Source: Heligmosomoides polygyrus polygyrus (lineage: Eukaryota; Nematoda; Chromadorea; Rhabditida; Heligmosomidae). From it: 64,000 bases of DNA. The position numbers and the translations under genes were made by a program. Within the stretch, counting starts at the first letter, position 1, and the number at the start of each line of letters is the position of its first letter. The notes beneath the pieces were generated by a model. It did not search any database, was not told the origin of the DNA, and was given only the letters and a program-made list of their open reading frames with translations. The stretch covers positions 22,555,407 through 22,619,406 of the forward strand of contig OX377205.1 of NCBI GenBank assembly GCA_947396885.1, read 5' to 3'. Positions 1,200 to 57,529 of this stretch are shown here, piece by piece.

Positions 1200-1399
1200 A
1201 GGAGGAAAGGAGAGGAGGACAGTGAAGGTAATGTCTTCTGGCATTGCCAGCTTCACATATCGAGCTTGTCGAACCCCTTCATTCTTACGAAAATTAAAAC
1301 TGCTTCTCGATTTTGTCCGGAAAAATCCTTCAAAAAAGATCAGATACCACTACAGAGAGAACAAGCACGCAGATGGCTACTTTTTCACTTTTCACTTTA

Positions 1400-1691
1400 G
1401 GATAAAAGGAGAAAGGACGGCGTTATTCAATCCCCTTTGGGATGCGCCACGCTTTCTACTTCTACGAGATGTCGTGAAGGCGAGTTGAATACGTATTTGG
1501 ACATACAATGACCTACGATGGCCAGCGATTTTCAAGTCAGTGCTTTGCCCTTCCCAGACAAGTCTGGTACCAATTCACCGACCCCGGAGGGATGGAAGGT
1601 TTGGTTGGCCTGAGCGGAAAATCCGAACCAGGAACCTGGTATCGGGTGCAGGCGACAGCCGGCGCCTCCTCCGACTGCGCTCCACGCGCCC
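1400..1691 (-). mobile_element. tRNA-derived SINE, family A
   Basis: A full-length family A copy in minus orientation. The tail (GGATAAAAGGAG on plus) is at the left and the tRNA-like head with its A box complement is at the right. It shares the 14-bp target duplication with the adjoining eL42 retrocopy. Confidence 0.88.
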
Positions 1692-1699
1692 ATACTTTT

Positions 1700-1780
1700 C
1701 GTATAATTACCCAAGTTTGAGGTAGTATGGTGAACGTACCAAAATCCAGAAGGACGTTCTGCGACGGCAAGTGCCGTAAG
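1700..1780 (+). pseudogene. RPL36A: SL1-tagged processed copy of ribosomal protein eL42 (RPL36A/RPL44), 5' part only
   Basis: Bases 1700-1721 match the 22-nt nematode SL1 spliced leader at 20 positions, including an unbroken 17-nt stretch. Five bases later an ATG (1727) opens 18 codons reading MVNVPKSRRTFCDGKCRK. This is the N-terminus of eL42, a large-subunit ribosomal protein of about 105 residues, in its worm form. SL1 is added to mRNA after transcription, so finding it in DNA next to the start codon means a mature mRNA was reverse transcribed. The copy stops at residue 18, exactly where the target duplication begins, and the next codon CAC is shared with the duplication. It cannot encode a ribosomal protein. 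Confidence 0.9.
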
Positions 1781-1884
1781 CACTTTTCACTTTAACGACC
1801 TAAAAATTGACAAAACTCGAGATGATAAAAGAAAGATTCCAAGAAATTTGCTTAGATTAATTTTATTCAATATCGGCTCAGCTA

Positions 1885-2162
1885 GGTGTGTGGTAGCGCA
1901 GTCGAGCAAGATGCTGGCTGTCGCGTGCACCAGGTTCCTGGTTCCGCTTTCCCGCCCTGGCCAACCAAGCCTTCTATCTCTATCGAATGTATTGGTACCA
2001 GACTTGGCTGGGAAGGACAACGCGCCGACTTGTTCGTCGGCTGAACACCATCATTGTGTGGCCAAATACGCATCCAAATAATCTTCACCACATCCTCTAG
2101 AAGTAGAATGCATGGCGCATCCCTAACGGGATTGATTAGCGCCGTCCTTTACCATTATCAAA
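1885..2162 (+). mobile_element. tRNA-derived SINE, family A (diverged)
   Basis: The head has the A box TAGCGCAGTCGAG and a degraded B box. The middle (TTGGTACCAGACTTG) and the 3' part (TAGAAGTAGAATGCATGGCG) are recognisable, and it ends near GCGCCGTCCTTTACC. Confidence 0.8.
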
Positions 2163-13929: not shown

Positions 13930-14245
13930 TGAGTCTTCAGTTTAACCGGTTCCATGCTGATATCAGCGGCCGGCCCATCCCCGTATCACGGGTGGGTGCT
14001 GACAGACCTGGAGGATATCGCGGATGATAGGTGCGGTCAAACAGCGCTGGTGGTGTAAGGCGAACATCGCTGCCTGGAAAGCAGAAGACCACCGGCGCTG
14101 TTTAGACCGAACAGAACATCCACGATATCTTCCTAGCAATCTCGCCTATCAGCACTGACCATCAGCTGCCCGGAAAGCAGAAGATGCGGGTTCGAGTCCC
14201 GCCTGGCGCAAGAGTTTTGATCGCAGCAAAACATCCTGTAACAGC
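13930..14245 (+). mobile_element. Retroposon family B, rearranged
   Basis: The family B sequence is in plus orientation, but a partial duplication of its middle (GGCGCTG ... GATATC) makes it longer. The 3' part contains a T arm (GCGGGTTCGAGTCCCGC) and ends AAACATCCTGTAACAG. Confidence 0.65.
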
Positions 14246-18254: not shown

Positions 18255-20374
18255 TGAAGGTAGTTCTTCTCCTCTTTAACAATCTGCTAAAAATTTACAA
18301 ACCCAGTACGACAAATAAACGCGACGAAGATTTTAATAGAGCAAAATATTCTCTTTCGAAAGACTTATGGCACCGTTCAAAAAATTATCCAAACAGTTGG
18401 CGTTGTTGGTTAAAAATTTTTTCTTCTGGACACTCCACTTGAAGTCCTGAAAATGAACGGTAATCAAAACAAATGAAAAACGCAACACACTTTCTAGTCC
18501 AACAAATTGTCGTCTTTCAAATAGTAAATAAATAACATTTCTCAAAAAATACAAACGTAAGTAGAAAGGAGCTATTGGCGAAGGTCATTCTTCCTTTTAC
18601 CTTTCACTTCATTTATCCGAGAAAATGCAAAAATCGAAATAGGAAAAAGAGAAACATATTTTATGATGAAGCAAACCATTTTTTTCAAATGTCAACGTTA
18701 TGCGAAAAACTTTTGGGAAAATCCGGAGTAAAGTGTTTGAAATACGGCGAGGGACTTAGTTCCCAACCTAATGATTCTCGCTGGAAAAACCCGTCACATT
18801 TACTTGCATATTTATTATGTCCACTTTTTTGCGCATGCCAGGGATTAACAATTTTAAGTGATGCAATAATTGCTTTTTAGAGAGTAATATAAAAACGGAA
18901 AGTAAATGAGATGGAGAAGAGCAGAGCGCAACGACAAAAGTGACTAACCAACCTGGTAAGCCGTCTGAAATCTGTCAACGCAGCGCTGTATGCCAATGCT
19001 TTCTTAGGTCAGTTCTGTGCCCCAAAGTTCCCCGTTGAATACTAATCCAAAGACTAATCAGATTTGGAGGGATAGTAAAGCCACTGGTAGACGAACTGGC
19101 CAAGAAACCGTTTTCATAGGCTGGCCCTGGATCGCCGGTCTCTTGACCAGTAAGCGAAGGTCCTAACGGGTATGTAGGTTATACCCATTCCATAGTTGCT
19201 CAAAATCCCGTATCTGTCATTTACCGCTTTGCCGACGAAGAAGTGCGACAAGGAGGTTATGGAGATCATCATTTATCTTAAAATCCCAACTAACGAATCA
19301 GGTGTGGCTCCCGTAGCATGGCAGCAAGAGCACATTACGTGCCCGGCCAACCTACTTTTCACTGTCGCCCTGAATCCTCGAAATGCCACACCCTTATTTA
19401 CTTGTTTATTTTATAGAGGGGTATTCAACAAAGCAAGTAACTAGTAAGAGAAACTAGCAAGGGAAGAAATAACTGTAAAACAACACGGTGAAGCATAGAA
19501 ATGGTGGAGAATGGTGTAGAAAACGACTTCTGAGGCAAGAAGCCGGTCGACAAGTCATTTGTATTCATTCAGTGAGTTTCGTACTGTGTGCTTTCTTGAC
19601 AGCTTCAAGATTTCCGCGCCACCCCTTCAAGTGAAGAATGCCGATCTTGTATTGCTCCTCGGACTAGGAAACTAAATTTTCCGCTGCCCACCCCTAGAAG
19701 AAGAAAATGAATAAAATTTCTCAATTATTGCTCAAATTATATATTACTCTTATCATTCGCAACTCTCGTCTATTGCTTGTGCGTGACAGGCTCAGGCTTT
19801 GCTTTCAACCCTGGCGACGGGATTCTTTGACGTAGTCGCCTCATTCTTTGCTGAGGGTTTTATCAGGAATGAAGTAGACACGGTACACACAAGAATGCCA
19901 TTTGTAACCGGGTCACTGAAAAAATAGAGACATGGTTGACAAACAAGCAGCGCAGTTCCTTGTCGTTATCAAGTCGAAGAGCAAACCAAACCAAGAAGAG
20001 TGCTTGCGATGTCCTTTAAGGGCACGCTGCTCATCGGTCGGGCATATCCTCGGTGACGAACCCATTCAAATCGTCCAAACGCTATTCGGCACCAATTAGT
20101 AGAATACACGAGACCGCCTTGAATCCTAGGATCCCGCTTGGAAGGACAACGAGACTTGAGCCCAGTGTTATTTTGGCTCTCTTAATTTCCATAGTGGCCC
20201 TCTTAATTGCGACTTCTGCGACAGTGGAAATATTTCTTTAACCTGGTTCAAATATAAAATAGGCACACTTGGTTGGTAGTGGGAACCCAGCATTCATAGT
20301 TTTTCAGCCTTAACATGCGCAAGTTTTGTGGTTGGGTTTGCTGAGCCTTCGCTCTGGATAACGATTTTCTTCAG
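18255..20374. other. No gene recognised
   Basis: AT-rich to about 18900, then mixed. Frames at 18575-18880 and 20053-20241 are open for 60-100 codons but show no domain, splice pattern or repeat relationship that I recognise. Confidence 0.4.
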
Positions 20375-24198: not shown

Positions 24199-24840
24199 GT
24201 TAAAAGTTCCGACTCCACCGACACGACTTTGGTCGAGCAGTTTTTTTTTCGCTGAAACTTTGCCTAGGGAGGGGGTTATTTGGAGTGCTGATCACGAATC
24301 TGAAATCTGCTTTTCAGGTTCGGTCGGAGACCACCCATAACGTTAACAAGGGTGGTCCAGGCAGGGTCACCGATTTCGCTGAAACTTCGTCTAGGAAGGT
24401 TATTTGGGGTGCTGATCACGAATTTGACATCCACTTCATAAGCGTCATATATCTTATAGACGATTTCTCACCTTGAAACAAAAGCTGGAAGAGGTACGGG
24501 GGTGAGAACGATGCAATGAGAATGAAACAATGACAGGTTTTTATTGATAAATATTGTGCCTCAACATGACCAAAACTACTGAAATGTATCAGCGGAGGAA
24601 TAAAAAGACAAGGGAATCATTCGATGGACCGAACACTTATCAAAACCAACTTCTTCTGCCGTCACCGGCAAAAACTTTAAGAATGTAATCCTATGTCTTC
24701 CTGTGCCTATATTATCTAGCCGATTCGTGAAAAGCGGATGCCAGATTCGTGATCAGCACCCCAAATAACCCCCAAGACAAAGTTCTAGCAAAATTTTTTT
24801 TTCAGACCGAAGTCGTGTCTGTGGAGTCGGAACTTTTAAC
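24199..24840. mobile_element. Foldback element with ~115-bp inverted ends, TA duplication
   Basis: The left end GTTAAAAGTTCCGACTCC and the right end are inverted copies over about 115 bp. TA flanks it at 24197-24198 and 24841-24842. It sits inside the CR1-like element between its endonuclease and RT parts. The arms contain GTGCTGATCACGAAT, a motif also found in the element at 29045. Confidence 0.78.
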
Positions 24841-25573
24841 TAGTGCCTATGTCACATGCAGCCGAGATGGTATATTGAAAGTAGGTAATTGGGTAAAATA
24901 TTTTACAAAAACTTATGTTGGACCACATCATGGCACTCATGTTGGACCAACAACTTCTTGCCATAATTTATGCAATATCTATTTTCATCCTGAAGAAGTT
25001 TATAAGGTTCTGAAGTGTTTGAAACCATCACCTACGGAGCCTTACGATGGAATTCCTTCAATTGTGTTCAAAAAATGTGCTAGTTCTCTGAGTAAGCCTT
25101 TAGCGCATATTTTTAATGTCTCCCTTATGTTTAGTGAAGTACCTGAAGTGTAGAAGGATGCCTTAATTACGGCTATTCCTGAGACGCTCAATCCTTTATC
25201 GATAACCGATTACCGAACAATAAGTCTTATGCCACAACCAGTAAAAGTTACGGAAAGAATTATCAGAGATAAATTAATAAACCACTTGAACAGGTTTCAT
25301 GTTGTCCCACCAGAACAACATGGTTTCCGTTCTGGTCTCTCGACAACCACTAACCTCGTCGATAGTGTGTTTGATTGGAGCTTAGCACTCAACAAAGGTA
25401 ATTTAGTTGATGTAGTTTACGTGGACTTGTCTAAAGCTTTCGACATAGTGAATCATTGTAAGCTTCTTCAACGACTTTTTTTACTTGGTATAGGTGAAAA
25501 CCTGCTAGATTGGTTTTCATCTTAAAGGAAGGCATATGACAGTAAAGATAGGTCGTCAATTCTCCAAACGCCA

Positions 25574-26269
25574 GTGGCGTTTGGAGAATTGTTGCCCCAG
25601 TGGCGTACCTCAAGGAGGAGTGCTTTCTCCGCTACATTTCGTTATGACGATAATATAAAAATTTACGGAATATACAATAGAGATAATTGTGTCGAGGTGA
25701 CAGCAGCTCTAAAACTTTCCATTGAAAAGCTTACTGTTTGGGCAGTTGAGTGGGATCTAGCCGTGAATCTATCTAAATCGTTTGTTGTGCATTTTGGTGG
25801 TTTACCGCCCAACAGATATGAGATAGGTGGGGTTGTTCTAAATAATTGTGACATTGCCAAGGACCTTGGTGTAGCCGTTGATTCTTCGCTCAATTTCAGA
25901 GTGCATATTGATCAAGTGGTTAGAAAGGCATATACATACAGCTCTTTTTCCATATTGCGCCATGTCCATACTGATAACCCAACAATCTTGGTTAGGTTGT
26001 ACAGATCCTACGTTCTGCCACATTTAGAGTATTGCTCCCAAGTATGGACTCCCTCTACTAAGAAGCAGGCCCTTAAATTAGAAAGGGTTCAGCAAACTTT
26101 CACGAGGATAGTGTGCAGTAGGATGAAACTAAACTCACCGTATTTCCTTGAATATGGTGATCGTTTGAAGCTCTTGGGCCTAAATACTTTACTGTACAGG
26201 CGGATCGTTGCTGACCTCACCTTTTGTTTTCGTCCTGCTTCGCGGAGAGGTAAGACTTGCTCCCAGTAA
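25574..26269 (+). pseudogene. CR1-like RT C-terminal half (open frame)
   Basis: The longest intact frame in the CR1-like element, 231 codons. It opens within the deleted catalytic region (YDDNIKIYG). It continues through the thumb-like region (LSKSFVVHFGG) and the conserved C-terminal part (HLEYCSQVW, LKLERVQQTFTRIVCSRM, DRLKLLGLNTLLYRR). It lacks the palm and finger domains and cannot be active. Confidence 0.85.
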
Positions 26270-34879: not shown

Positions 34880-35457
34880 ACCCTAAACATTGTTCTCCTT
34901 GACAGCTGGCATGGGTTCAGGGATCACGAGAACCTCGTTTCCGAGGTGCCTGCTGAAAAGAGCTTAAGCTGATAACAGTACCGCCAGGAGCGACGAGCCT
35001 TTGCCAGCCTCTCGATGTATACTTCTTCCGGCTTTTCAAACGGTTCATCCGGCGAATTCATGAACATGTGCTCCCCTTCCGTCCGGATTTCAACTACTTC
35101 TCAAGAGACAACACTTTGAAGGAAATCATGAATCGCTTCGGACCAGCTCACTTGATGTTTAAATTTTTAAGGCAATTTTCAAGGTATCCGTTCTTGCAGG
35201 TGGTCAGTCAGACGTATAGGCAATTCTGCGCTCCGGTATTCCGAAGGTGCTTTGCGCACGCGTGGGTGGCAGCTGGATATGTGGACATGCATCCGGGGCA
35301 CTTCTCAACACCGGCGGACTACGCCTTCGATAAAGTGCCTGTCGATACGTCCTGCCAGGAAGCTTCCGGCTGCTCTTTCTTGGCATTTATCCGCTGCTGC
35401 TGGTGTCAGAAGCTGCCTTGCTTCGCGTGTTTCATAGAAGGTTACCACAACTGTTAA
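34880..35457 (+). pseudogene. Transposase C-terminal half (pogo/Tc5-type DDE), frameshifted
   Basis: One frame reads NIVLLDSWHGFRDHENLV. After a frameshift near 34965 another reads LKLITVPPGATSLCQPLD, VYFFRLFKRFIRRI and then 129 codons to a stop at 35457. The Asp in LLDSW and the Asp in QPLD are separated by 37 residues, as the second and third metal-binding residues of a DDE nuclease would be. The N-terminal DNA-binding half and first Asp are missing. The last 60 codons lie in the right arm, so an inverted copy of them is present in the left arm. Confidence 0.8.
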
Positions 35458-41182: not shown

Positions 41183-42053
41183 TTAGGGGGGGGCAAAAGT
41201 AATGAGAGTCTCCATGCCGTGCCCATATATGTTGTGATTGGAGTCCGGTTTCGTGCTTGTCGTATTTGTATGTTTGTTTGCTACATACTGGAGGAAACCT
41301 GAGAAGTGATCTTGTTCGCCCTTTCGAGAAGCATGCTAAACCCCAGTCTGACGAATCGACCTGTGTCGCGCAAATCTCACCCAATTCACAACCCGAGCAG
41401 CCTGGACTCAATAGTCACGCAAGATGAGTAGTACGTCTCCTACCTTAACCCTGCCAAGCAGCGAGTCTGAGTGAAGCCTGGTTACCTGTTACCGACCTTC
41501 GTTCGGCGGGATGTTCACAGAAGCACCTTCTAAGCTTTTGGGTCTGCGTCCAAGGAACGGCATACTGGAAGCTGTTTGTGAACGAAACAGAAGAGATGGA
41601 CCTGCGACTCGAACTTATTCAGTCGCAGCGCTTCAAGAAGGTCCTCCTCCTCGACAACGCCGCACTCCATCGGGCAAAAGTGACCATGGACAAGCTTGCT
41701 CGGCTGGGCTACGTTCACATGCCTCTCCCACCGTACACCACCGGATATCTCCCCTCGCGACTGCCACTACTTCTTGAGCCTATAGGACATTATGGTCGGA
41801 AAGGACACAAGGACCCAGGCAGACCTCGACAACAATAACGAGCAGTGGATCAGCACCAGGCCTAAGCAGATCTGGAAGGATGGGATCAGGAAGTTAGCTG
41901 ATCGATGGCAGCAAGCTCACTGCCCTTAATGGCAAATACATTCCTCAGCATCGTTGAGTAAATGAGTAAATGAGAAAATGAGTAAATGTAAACGAGTTAT
42001 AGAGAGATAAAGAAATGTGTTGAATTCGTCTCATTACTTATGGCCCACCCTAA
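41183..42053 (+). mobile_element. Second mariner-type transposon, deleted, intact ends
   Basis: The ends TTAGGGGGGGGCAAAAGTAA and the complement of TTACTTATGGCCCACCCTAA are inverted repeats. TA flanks both sides (41181-41182 and 42054-42055). Transposase pieces remain: YWKLFVNETEEMDLRLEL, VLLLDNAALHRAKVTMDKLA, and after frame breaks KQIWKDGIRKLADRWQQAHC. The second catalytic Asp (LLDN) is kept. The third is lost: the usual PPYSPD reads PPYTTG. It is a different lineage from the mariner at 32547. Confidence 0.85.
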
Positions 42054-42386: not shown

Positions 42387-42736
42387 TTAGGTTGTCTCAT
42401 AAGTCCCGCCGTTTTTTCAACGATTCATTGCGGATTTCGCCGGCGGTCTGTTGAATAGCGCTATACAGCTTTCGAAAGAGAATAATTTGCTCTATCAGAT
42501 CATGTATGGCATTTCTTTATTCACTTCGAACTTTTTCAATGTTTAGAGCATTAAAGTGAAAAGTGAAAAAGTGGCCATCTGCGCAGTCGCTTCTCTCCGC
42601 TTAGGTTTGGAACTCTTGCTCAGTTTTTCATAGTATTTTCATAGCATTTGGAAGACAATGTTCTGTACTAAAAGGATACCTGTTGGTCCTATTTGCTTAA
42701 TTGTCCGTTATTGATTTTTAGGTCATCAAATTGGGA
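42387..42736 (+). mobile_element. mariner-like repeat fragment
   Basis: TTAGGTTGTCTCATAAGTCC follows TA and looks like a mariner-type terminal repeat, but no matching right end is seen. The part at 42510-42600 (minus) is the empty-site relative of the sequence around 1386 and 1795. Confidence 0.5.
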
Positions 42737-48907: not shown

Positions 48908-49276
48908 TTATTCATCGGGGTTGCACCGATTCCTTTCCCACGACTCTCGGATGCGCACCCAACGCATATATGCTGCGTTGCGACGAGCGCGACGCAGCCG
49001 CTTCTCCCAGCGTGTGACGCTGACATCCCGAATGACCGTGGGCCCCACGGGGCAAAAGGCCGGGTGGTGAGTGGCCTGGTTGCAGTACCTACATGGGGGA
49101 GTGTCGCGTGGACAGTCGTTATCGAGGTGGTCTCCTGTGCAGAGAAAGCACCGTCCATTCAGTGAATGGACTTGAAACCTCTTCTCGAGCGACCGACAGT
49201 TGTAACACGCCGCGGAGTAATGATTTTCTCCGCAAAAGGCACAAGAGATGTACCACGGGATCCCTGATCCCGGCAC
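48908..49276 (-). pseudogene. Gag C-terminal part: three zinc knuckles
   Basis: This frame encodes CAFCGENHYSAAC, CFLCTGDHLDNDC and CRYCNQATHHPAFC, three Cys/His zinc knuckles spaced as in BEL/Pao Gag. A basic tail (WEKRLRRARR) and a stop follow. Zinc knuckles bind the element RNA during packaging into particles. It is one frame away from the upstream gag ORF, with the shift near 49270-49300, so the protein is either made by frameshifting or broken. Confidence 0.85.
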
Positions 49277-49944
49277 ATGACCGAAGGGGACGACCCGTGG
49301 CGGCTGGCAGGCATGGCGACATTGAAATGATAATACGGCTGTTGCTGCGCCTGCGACGACTGTGAGCCATTTGGTGGCTGTTGACCTATTGGCGGCATGG
49401 CAGGCATGGCGACAGTGAATGGGTAGTATGGCTGTTGCGGCGCCTGCGACGACTGTGAGCCGCTTGGTGGCTCTTGACCCGTAGGCGGCGCGGTGGTGAC
49501 AGACGACTCAGATGCCTCTGTGGCAGTATTAGATGGCTGCGTCATCGGCGGAGTTTGCGACGAGCGGCACTCCTCCATCAGCGACTGTACCTCTTCGAGG
49601 CTGTATTGCAAAGTGATGAGTAGCGACTCTGTTTGCACCACCGCGTCGTCGACGCGCGTTTCTTGCATGTATGTGTCGTAGGCGGCCTGGTCAGCACGCT
49701 GGTCGGACGACGACCTGACTAAGTCTAGAAGCGCCTTGCGACGATCCCCGCTATTGTTTAGGGCTGACTTGATATCTGCAATTGTCGTTTGGAGCTGTTT
49801 AGATCGCGCGTCGAGTGCCTGGTATTGACCGCGGTCGTTTGCCTCGACAGTTGATAGAAGAGAGGGATTGATGTTACCTTTGAGTGCTTCCAAGGCCGTG
49901 AGCGCCTTAGTAAGGTTAGCCTTGCACGACGAAACCGTAGGCAT
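49159..49944 (-). CDS. Gag N-terminal part of the LTR element
   Basis: From ATG at 49944, 261 codons. Residues 1-125 are helical and charged (ALTALEALKGNINPSLLS, LDLVRSSSDQRADQAAYD, LEEVQSLMEE), likely a coiled coil. Residues 130-220 are Ser/Pro/Gln-rich with a duplicated block (GSQSSQAPQQPYYPF and GSQSSQAQQQPYYHF). The last part runs in the wrong frame over the zinc-knuckle region. Gag would form the particle shell in the cytoplasm. The frame is otherwise clean, which fits a young element. Confidence 0.8.
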   Translation of the reverse strand: MPTVSSCKANLTKALTALEALKGNINPSLLSTVEANDRGQYQALDARSKQLQTTIADIKSALNNSGDRRKALLDLVRSSSDQRADQAAYDTYMQETRVDDAVVQTESLLITLQYSLEEVQSLMEECRSSQTPPMTQPSNTATEASESSVTTAPPTGQEPPSGSQSSQAPQQPYYPFTVAMPAMPPIGQQPPNGSQSSQAQQQPYYHFNVAMPASRHGSSPSVMCRDQGSRGTSLVPFAEKIITPRRVTTVGRSRRGFKSIH

Positions 49945-50766
49945 GGTCGTTGTTCGACTTTGAAAAGATTATTGGCGGAAGGCGGTACTGCCGTGACCCG
50001 AGTCTAAGATAAGATGACCTAAGCGTGTGCTGACTGAAAGGAGGGCTCGGGCCCTGAGCCTCCTTCATACAAGCACGGTCAATATAGCGACACACGGCCA
50101 TACGTGAGAGCTATTGTGACAGAAATGTGGGTATGCAAGTGAATGATGTTACTGCGACACGCGTAGACCTATGCGAAACAGGGTGTGTAGGCGAGACACG
50201 AAACTGTTGAACAGCGTGTGCTCTACGAGCAATGCATGACGACTAAGGCCTTGGACCAAGTGAAGTTGCGGGCGGAACCTAAGACGACAACAGTAAATAC
50301 TGCCAATGGGTTAACTTGCCAGACAGTACGTAGCCCTGTAGACCTGCCTTAGGGGAGCTGCTACGCACTGTTGAACCTGGGGTCTCCTACTGGGTCCCGT
50401 TTGCATGCTTCTTTGCGACGGCGACAAGTCCAAGAGGGGTTTCCTAGTCGGTTAGTCCGACTATCTGCTCCTTCTATGCGCGCGCCGTGGCACTTGTGGT
50501 TCGACGTATAACGGCTGTCTCTGTGCTGGCTCGTGCCACTCGAGGTGCACAGGTAAGAACCACGGCCACTAGAAGGAGGAGGGCATTACCCCAGTTATAG
50601 CGCATGCAGGTGCCGTCAGCGGCACCTGCACTAGTCCAGTTTGTGCGACCCCTACACCGGACGCGGCGACAAGGCTTAATGCCTGCGAGCCAACGCAAAC
50701 GTCCGATCACTAGGGCCCAGTGTGGTTCCCCCACACTGAACCTCGGACTGATGCACCATGTCGTGC

Positions 50767-55699: not shown

Positions 55700-57529
55700 G
55701 GCTCGGGTGGACAGGGCTCATCGTGTTAAGTGGTTGTCAGCCTCTTTAAGAATCACACGAGTGGATATAAGTGGTACAACTAGCAGTGGGGATCAAATAG
55801 GCTGGAGCGGGAGGCCCACGATGTAGGAACGCCCAATCCGTTGTTCTGTGTTGTATGAATTTCAAAATTATCAGCAGCACTGGTGGGTTCTAGCCCTATG
55901 GTGAACCAAGTTAGTTCACTTCTGCTGTGAATGGGCATACATGTGCCTTCCTACCAAGGGACATACTCTAACGTGTAGAGCGAGGAGCACTAGAATAGGG
56001 CCGCAAATTCTCACCACAACACTGACGTCAACTTAAAAGGCTCTCGAACAGAAACAAAGTAAAACGGTGATAAAGGCAGTAACGAAGAGCGGCAGTATGG
56101 ATTAACACAGCAGGAGCTGTTCTTGAAAAGTGGAGGCGGAAGCTCGTACACATCAGAAGGTTATGCCCGAACACAGAGAAGGTAGCAAGAACAGGAATGA
56201 GCAGTGACCTCGGCCATGCATACAGGCGGCAGAGTCGTACCCTGCGGTAACGCAACTGTAGCAGCACCTAACTGCAAGCACTAATTGACCGGTAGCAAGG
56301 ACAGGAGCCTTCAAGGGGGTCAGTTCGAAGCAGTAGCCACCCAACACGTGCGCGGGCAGAGCCGCGGCGCCGGCCTATTTCGCAACGGCTCGCGTGTTCT
56401 CCTCGGCAGCGCGATTGCTCACATCCCTGCGCTTCCCTTCGGAGAGAGAAGTCGAGAACCTGCCTCAAACTTGGGTGATTAAACCATCGAGCCCGCGGAG
56501 TTTACGAAGTTTCCCACGGTCACGTTGAGACAAAAAAAACCCTCCTCTATTATATATGGTGGGATAATAATAAGAACTTGGGTGCAAGTTTAGAGCGAGA
56601 GATCCACCTTCTTTTCGCTCTCTCAACGACCGGAGAATTTTCTTGAAATCTTTTTAATGAAAACGTTAAGCACGATTACAGAAGTATTATTACGATTGAA
56701 ATTCACTTATTGTTAGAGTTGCTACGCTTAAGATAAGCTGCCAGTTTAGAAAGAGATGCAGGATGGGCTCCTATCTAGACTTACATCAGAACTTGCACGT
56801 CATGTGTTAGGAAGTGTATACGAAATCATTTAACTACAATAGGGTGTCACTTTTTCAGCTTTTACTGAAGAAGCATCGTCTAAAAATTGATTGAGCATTA
56901 GAAGGTTGTTCAGTTTGGTGTCTCGAACTCAATTTCTGAACCAGAGCATGTGGTCCCAATTATTTGACACTGGCGGCTGCCGCGACGCAACCGCGCAGCG
57001 CAATGACTCAGCTGTTTCGTGCGCGCGATCCACCGACACTCGAGTACTCTGACCCGTGAATTGAACATTGGGCTAAACCTCACTCTACATTGATGGAAAT
57101 TACAATGCGTGGATTACACGAAAACATTACGCATCTTTACCACGGTTGTCAGATGGATGGCTACCGCCCTTGCTTGCTGGCTGACTAACTGGTCGATAAC
57201 TGAAGTACGAAATTTCAGCCCATAAGAGCTCGAACGAGCAGTATATTGTATTGGGAAAGTAGCTGTAGTGCAGCTCAGATAATCAGCGACTTTGGGTCCA
57301 TGATCAACTAATCGCCTTTTCGAAGGGATTGTTCGTAATTGTTAAGCATGAGCAACCGTCGACTACTCGTGAAATCGTCATCGAATACTACAACAATCAC
57401 ACCAGAAACCTATACCCATATTTGTACTAATGAGAGAAGGACACACCAGGTCGCAGTGACACTTGGAGGTAATATGTACAGTGATTTTACGAAGGGGCGA
57501 GAGCGAAACTCACCCAGGCAAACTTAGTC
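55700..57529. other. No gene recognised
   Basis: Apart from the SL1-like sequence at 56464, there are only overlapping short frames. A GC-rich patch at 56340-56460 lies downstream of that leader on the minus strand. Confidence 0.4.
56464..56485 (-). pseudogene. SL1 spliced-leader sequence in genomic DNA
   Basis: On the minus strand 21 of 22 bases match SL1. The next bases are GCAGGTTCTC, not GTA, so it lacks the splice donor of an SL RNA gene. It may be a second SL1-tagged retrocopy whose mRNA I cannot identify, or a damaged SL RNA gene. Confidence 0.7.

What the first reader, a model, noticed from the sequence alone, without database searches (positions are those of the whole stretch)
1386..1794. 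SINE and SL1-capped eL42 mRNA co-inserted head to head in one target duplication
A minus-strand SINE and a plus-strand copy of the first 18 codons of eL42, preceded by 20/22 bases of SL1, lie between two exact CACTTTTCACTTTA repeats. The 5' ends of both RNAs meet in the middle with 8 extra bases. The eL42 copy stops exactly at the repeat, and its next codon CAC is the start of that repeat, as if the target strand paired with CAC in the mRNA. A related repeat at 42510-42600 (minus) shows the site uninterrupted. Ordinary retrocopies lose the 5' end; here the 5' end, with leader, is all that is kept. The simplest account is twin priming in which the two target strands primed on different RNAs.
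Basis: partly seen in the sequence, partly recalled or inferred. Interest (0 to 1): 0.95.

Follow-up and report, generated by a model that had tools for sequence, protein, structure and literature searches.

The report
Two RNAs inserted back to back
In what is most likely a nematode genome, a short retroelement and a copy of the leader-bearing start of a ribosomal-protein mRNA sit head to head inside one 14-base target duplication, and 31 other places pair the same kind of element head to head with the same leader, likely because each strand of one DNA break was copied onto a different RNA.

Summary
At 1386-1794 a minus-strand SINE and the first 18 codons of eL42, preceded by 20 of 22 bases of SL1, lie between exact 14-base repeats; a related repeat at 42512-42597 shows the empty site. 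That alone could mean two successive insertions. The whole genome argues against it. It holds 32 places where a SINE head is followed within 30 bases by the SL1 core (reversed-pattern control 0; SINE-tail motif 0). I read the other 31: each has a reverse-strand SINE at the joint, and, one local duplicate apart, different sequences follow, among them eS4, eS10, CCT-gamma and glutamate dehydrogenase. In 11 of 26 assessable loci one duplication encloses both pieces. The best account is twin priming on two RNAs in one event: the SINE cDNA briefly copies the tip of the opposite overhang, while that overhang primes on an mRNA and runs to its cap. Two-RNA twin priming has been proposed for mammalian L1; a recurrent SINE plus trans-spliced-mRNA form is a new variant.

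The parts
1386..1399 (.). left copy of the target duplication CACTTTTCACTTTA (13 bp ACTTTTCACTTTA if the first C is not counted)
   Evidence: (score 14, best cross-locus null 10)
1400..1693 (-). SINE, tail outwards (GGATAAAAGG...), head GGGCGCG at 1685-1691; AT at 1692-1693 is read as its 5' end or junction bases
1694..1700 (.). ACTTTTC: partial third copy of the target, in phase with the duplication, between SINE head and SL1
1701..1721 (+). spliced leader SL1 (20 of 21 from base 2; 20 of 22 if 1700 is counted)
1722..1726 (+). GTAGT, 5' untranslated part of the eL42 mRNA (inferred)
1727..1780 (+). first 18 codons of eL42
1781..1794 (.). right copy of the target duplication; its first three bases CAC can also be eL42 codon 19 (His) (inferred microhomology)
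42512..42597 (-). related host repeat without the insertion (empty site)

Best explanation
The SINE and the SL1-capped eL42 fragment likely entered together in one target-primed reverse transcription event in which the two strands of a staggered break were copied onto two different RNAs (two-RNA twin priming). Shown: both pieces lie in one 14-base duplication, head to head, with the SINE tail and the cut end of the mRNA copy at the outer edges; SINE and SL1 stand head to head at 31 other places. Inferred: (1) the left 3' overhang primes on the SINE RNA tail and is copied to the SINE 5' end; (2) that cDNA jumps to the tip of the opposite overhang and copies a few bases of target, as in an ordinary SINE 5' junction, but lets go; (3) the opposite overhang (ending GTG or GT) pairs with CAC inside the eL42 mRNA and is copied to the cap, through SL1; (4) its 3' end is joined, probably by an end-to-end template jump, to the 3' end of the SINE cDNA, which closes the insertion.
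For: Recurrence: SINE head + N0-30 + SL1 core 32 times in 656 Mb, reversed-pattern control 0; SINE-tail motif + N0-30 + SL1 core 0 times. All 31 others carry a reverse-strand SINE match at the joint, 27 of 31 from SINE base 1. 17 of the 32 have the perfect 17-base head against about 1.0 expected (my arithmetic from 11799 such heads; 3661 SL1 cores; 31 positions); a coarser estimate from the window's four intact heads gives 3.5 expected for all 32. After SL1 no two of the 32 are alike except L073/L074, identical over 250 bases, so 31 events. 18 of 32 have all 22 SL1 bases exact. One duplication around both pieces beats all 25 cross-locus nulls in 11 of 26 assessable loci. Joint sequence resembles the locus's own duplication: 37 of 20000 permutations reach the observed sum for these 11 loci, 352 of 20000 without the focal locus. 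L059 has AATCAAT at the joint and AATCAATGTTGAT as duplication. An ordinary SINE insert, L011, shows a 7-base tip repeat without any second RNA.
Against: 15 of 26 assessable loci gave no duplication above the nulls within 520 bases, and in L067 and L084 the margin is one base; looking up to 4.2 kb away in 20 loci gave only unproven 11-16 base matches (L056, L057, L058, L071). In 6 of 32 the SINE 3' end was not found; in L070 and L082 the SINE match is only 45 and 30 bases; L064, L066, L067 and L075 do not align from SINE base 1. Most SL1 cores are not at SINE heads. Without the focal locus the joint/duplication resemblance is modest. The microhomology rests on one locus and on protein conservation. 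PMC4245944 (passages) saw 5' inversion almost only with L1 in human cells, and germline Alu inversions are 0.02% in PMC12016303 (passages). A partial target copy, taken alone, is also what a second insertion with its own 7-bp duplication would leave.
Confidence: 0.84

Rival explanations
1. Two successive insertions: the SINE came first with a 13-bp duplication, and later a 3'-truncated, tailless eL42 retrocopy inserted into the SINE's 5' copy of that duplication, making its own 7-bp duplication ACTTTTC.
For: At the focal locus it needs no mutation: ACTTTTC flanks the mRNA piece on both sides and abuts the SINE end. PMC2912911 (passages) mentions tailless retrocopies of tRNAs.
Against: The left edge of the second duplication would have to coincide with that of the first. 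At L059 it does so again (AATCAAT of AATCAATGTTGAT). And later insertions would have to strike SINE heads, head to head, far above chance: 17 perfect-head cases against about one expected. PMC2912911 reports that mRNA retrocopies are not associated with short duplications.
Confidence: 0.11
2. Template switching in one strand, or retrotransposition of one chimeric RNA that carried antisense SINE upstream of SL1-eL42.
For: Chimeras by template switching or RNA joining are reported in mammals (PMC4476161, PMC13174262).
Against: Those give both pieces in the same orientation (PMC13174262). SL1 is by rule the 5' end of an mRNA (established knowledge), and the outer edge is the SINE 3' tail, at which an antisense transcript would not be expected to end.
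Confidence: 0.03
3. Chance adjacency, assembly error, or a segment copied as DNA from elsewhere.
For: SINEs and SL1 sequences are both frequent (11799 perfect heads, 3661 SL1 cores).
Against: 17 seen against about 1 expected for perfect heads; shared duplications; different downstream sequences.
Confidence: 0.02

Closest known systems
Inverted snRNA/L1 chimeras by twin priming on two RNAs (U5, U1, U2, U6; PMC4476161, passages and section 6 read)
   Same: Opposite orientation, one duplication around both, second RNA 3'-truncated, complementarity at the second RNA/target junction.
   Different: First RNA here is a SINE, second an SL1 trans-spliced mRNA, in a likely nematode; joints carry partial target copies.
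Antisense 5S, tRNA-half and mRNA chimeras with LINE-1 (PMC13174262, passages and section 13 read)
   Same: Antisense second RNA, for 5S with its start at the joint; the authors suggest twin priming.
   Different: There 15 of 17 mRNA/lncRNA chimeras are sense, and the antisense mRNA ones did not include a first exon; here the second pieces are leader-bearing 5' ends, which is also what I searched for.
Classical L1 twin priming, 5' inversion (Ostertag and Kazazian 2001, recalled and as cited in the papers read)
   Same: Both target strands prime; inverted piece; microhomology. In PMC2912911 (passages) about 70% of 5'-inverted L1 show 2-5 bases of it; here probably 3.
   Different: Two different RNAs instead of one.
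Dinoflagellate retrogenes tagged by DinoSL (PMC6050394, PMC12014239; search listing and abstract starts only)
   Same: A spliced leader in genomic DNA marks an mRNA origin.
   Different: Here 5' fragments beside SINEs, not whole retrogenes.

Membership tests
Two-RNA twin-priming chimera | two different RNAs in opposite orientation | tested here: met
Two-RNA twin-priming chimera | one target duplication encloses both | tested here: met
   focal locus and 10 others of 26 assessable; not shown in the other 15
Two-RNA twin-priming chimera | second RNA complete at its 5' end and cut at its 3' end | tested here: met
   SL1 at the joint, eL42 ends after codon 18
Two-RNA twin-priming chimera | microhomology between second RNA and target at the outer edge | tested here: inconclusive
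   CAC at the focal locus, from protein conservation only; parent gene not obtained
Two-RNA twin-priming chimera | pieces present and absent together in relatives | not testable with these tools
   no relatives of this genome are held
Classical twin priming (one RNA) | both pieces from the same RNA | tested here: not met
   SINE versus eL42 mRNA
Processed pseudogene | mRNA 3' end with poly(A) tail | tested here: not met
   eL42 piece stops after codon 18 at the duplication
tRNA-derived SINE | tRNA-like A and B boxes in the head | not tested
   seen by eye only; Rfam listed no tRNA at this copy; ARAGORN was not run

The most novel reading that the evidence does not exclude
SINE integration in this genome now and then passes through a state in which the free 3' end of the second target strand picks up a capped, trans-spliced mRNA as template and runs to its cap, and the two cDNAs are then joined end to end; the short target copies at the joints are fossils of the normal template jump onto the overhang, caught half way.
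Probability: 0.55. Interest if true: 0.85.

Novelty: new variant of a known kind. Interest (0 to 1): 0.74.

Why it matters
The second half of LINE integration is still poorly understood (PMC6895275, start of abstract and passages). Here the second RNA bears a 22-base leader that marks its exact 5' end, so such insertions can be found by a simple pattern and their junctions read to the base. That gives a natural collection of diverted second-strand reactions, about 31 in one genome and perhaps more in other genomes with trans-splicing, and makes the template-jump model testable. It would also be a way in which 5' ends of housekeeping mRNAs are scattered through a genome.

Tried and rejected
Chance filler between SINE and SL1: set aside after the 7-base target copy and its recurrence. 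Two successive insertions: taken seriously (notes), demoted. SL1 RNA gene instead of mRNA at the focal place: Rfam SL1 scores 17.5 bits against a cut-off of 75. A second empty site at 18595-18657: E 0.007, judged chance. A cruder search for duplications missed the focal one because its tail anchor was wrong; replaced. Rfam on 20 loci: nothing at gathering score. Parent eL42 gene in the genome: not completed. The first genome search scored 40 of 6588 candidates, so it does not show that the SL1-eL42 piece is unique.

Full report
What is there. Between exact copies of CACTTTTCACTTTA at 1386-1399 and 1781-1794 lie, on the minus strand, a SINE (1400-1691, 92% to a family consensus) and, on the plus strand, SL1 and the first 18 codons of eL42. 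The 19 residues read from 1727 match eL42 chains of the PDB, best E 1.7e-08. Residue 19 is His followed by Thr in 15 of 15 nematode eL42 proteins read, so the copy matches eL42 through CAC and then leaves it, where the right duplication begins. A host-repeat copy at 42512-42597 runs through the site without the insert (80% over 86 bases across the joint, E 9e-16).

Close SINE relatives begin with GGGCGCG, some with T, AT or GT before it. So the '8 extra bases' plus base 1700 read AT + ACTTTTC, and ACTTTTC is an exact, in-phase piece of the target. This made me doubt the one-event reading: a SINE with a 13-bp duplication, entered later by an mRNA piece with a 7-bp duplication, would look the same. 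One locus could not decide.

The genome. The window lies in an unnamed 656 Mb assembly. The pattern 'SINE head, up to 30 bases, SL1 core' occurs 32 times, 18 on one strand and 14 on the other, reversed control 0. I fetched the other 31. All 31 have a reverse-strand SINE match at the joint, 27 from SINE base 1; in L070 and L082 the match is only 45 and 30 bases. 18 of the 32 have the complete 22-base SL1, and after it no two are alike except L073/L074, a local duplication. As control, the SINE-tail motif followed by the SL1 core occurs 0 times; but the SINE tail takes up part of the allowed gap, and one SINE with a changed tail motif does end at an SL1 (L098). With 11799 perfect 17-base heads and 3661 SL1 cores about 1.0 perfect head-to-leader neighbour is expected by chance (my arithmetic); 17 are seen. 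From the four intact heads in the window, 3.5 would be expected for the 32. Spacers are short: 28 of 32 leave 10 bases or fewer before SL1 (binomial P 0.0003 against an even spread).

The second RNAs. Identified by search: eS4 (L056), a MADF protein (L071), an Arf/Sar-type GTPase (L077), eS10 (L079), phosphorylase (L058, E 4.9e-06, just under the curated cut-off) and, weakly, an RRM protein (L086); CCT gamma (L057, E 9e-09); glutamate dehydrogenase (L067, E 1e-20). Of the ten peptides given to Pfam, L060, L063 and L067 had no hit. The other loci were not identified; parts of what was translated may be host DNA beyond the fragment. In L084 only SL1 plus GT stands before the duplication, so the SL1 RNA itself may be the template there (inference).

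One duplication around both. For 26 of 32 loci the SINE reaches its 3' end. In 11 the best match between left flank and the 520 bases after SL1 beats all 25 cross-locus nulls: L076, focal, L069, L067, L059, L065, L085, L084, L079, L075, L060; in L067 and L084 by one. The fragments after SL1 are 2 to 360 bases. In the other 15 no duplication was shown; for 20 loci I looked up to 4.2 kb away, with one null each, and found unproven matches in L056, L057, L058 and L071.

The joint. In L059 the filler AATCAAT is the start of its duplication AATCAATGTTGAT, the same picture as at the focal place. Over the 11 robust loci the resemblance of filler to own duplication is reached by 37 of 20000 permutations, by 352 of 20000 without the focal locus; a set of 16 with five hand-picked loci gave 0 of 3002. 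Of 39 ordinary SINE copies, chosen as best matches to the focal one and including a few repeats of one place, 33 have a clear duplication; 24 of these have 0-2 bases between it and the head, but L011 repeats the last 7 bases of its duplication there. So copying a few bases of the opposite overhang and letting go may be part of SINE insertion here even without a second RNA.

Mechanism. Both outer edges are ends at which reverse transcription would start (SINE tail; mRNA cut at a target match); both inner ends are 5' ends of RNAs. That is the expected product when the two overhangs of one staggered break prime on two RNAs. The partial target copy suggests that the SINE cDNA had already touched the opposite overhang. 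Successive insertions would need the second duplication to share its left edge with the first at both places of the robust set where a long tip copy is seen (focal, L059), and would need SINE heads to be struck far above chance.

What is known. Two-RNA twin priming was proposed for U5/L1 and similar chimeras in mammals (PMC4476161, passages and section 6) and for antisense 5S, tRNA-half and mRNA chimeras (PMC13174262, passages and section 13). Germline Alu 5' inversions are 0.02% in one survey (PMC12016303, passages); here 17 of 11799 perfect heads, 0.14%, have the leader within 30 bases. I found no report of this in nematodes: 'twin priming' with 'nematode' gave 0 papers, with 'elegans' one on primate L1; searches joining spliced leader with retrocopies or pseudogenes listed dinoflagellate retrogenes, a Caenorhabditis retrocopy survey (PMC3532220) and a Trichinella retrogene (PMC4022200), seen as listings only (20 of 49 listed), and nothing closer (2 of 2; 10 of 46). 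Only openly licensed PMC papers were searched.

Limits. No parent gene, no relatives and no RNA data were available.

Noticed in passing
G000, looked at in L088-L127: 3661 exact SL1 cores in the genome. 40 places from the first 100 listed (46 SL1 sites) look by eye mostly like SL1 RNA gene clusters and repeat families that begin with SL1, with similar sequence upstream; some look like mRNA copies.
   Followed up: partly
L091, L113, L126: SL1 next to an inverted copy of itself or of the sequence after it, forming palindromes; in L126 a SINE head lies 35 bases further out.
   Followed up: no
L029, L030, L031: Tandem SINE pairs. In L030 and L031 a copy of the duplication lies between the two SINEs; in L029 it does not, and the bases before the first SINE head look like repeated pieces of the duplication TATGTATAACAAA.
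   Followed up: partly
L003 upstream of the SINE head: Between duplication TTATCGGGATCAG and SINE head stand 46 bases that form, with the end of the duplication, an inverted repeat with arms of about 23 bases, as if the overhang had been extended and then folded back on itself (read by eye).
   Followed up: no
56464-56485 (minus): SL1 with one change (GGTTTAATCACCCAAGTTTGAG) followed by GCAGGT; no Rfam SL1 match. Origin unclear.
   Followed up: partly
1885-2160 (+): An older SINE copy (80%) stands about 90 bases right of the insertion, head towards it, without a clear duplication.
   Followed up: no
14044-14210 (+): A tRNA match 167 bases long for a 71-position model, so probably with a long intron.
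   Followed up: no
24731-26269 (+), 34957-35457 (+), 41449-41838 (+), 48908-49968 (-): Open frames that look by eye like non-LTR reverse transcriptase, mariner-type transposase and a gag-like zinc-knuckle protein; no family search was made.
   Followed up: no
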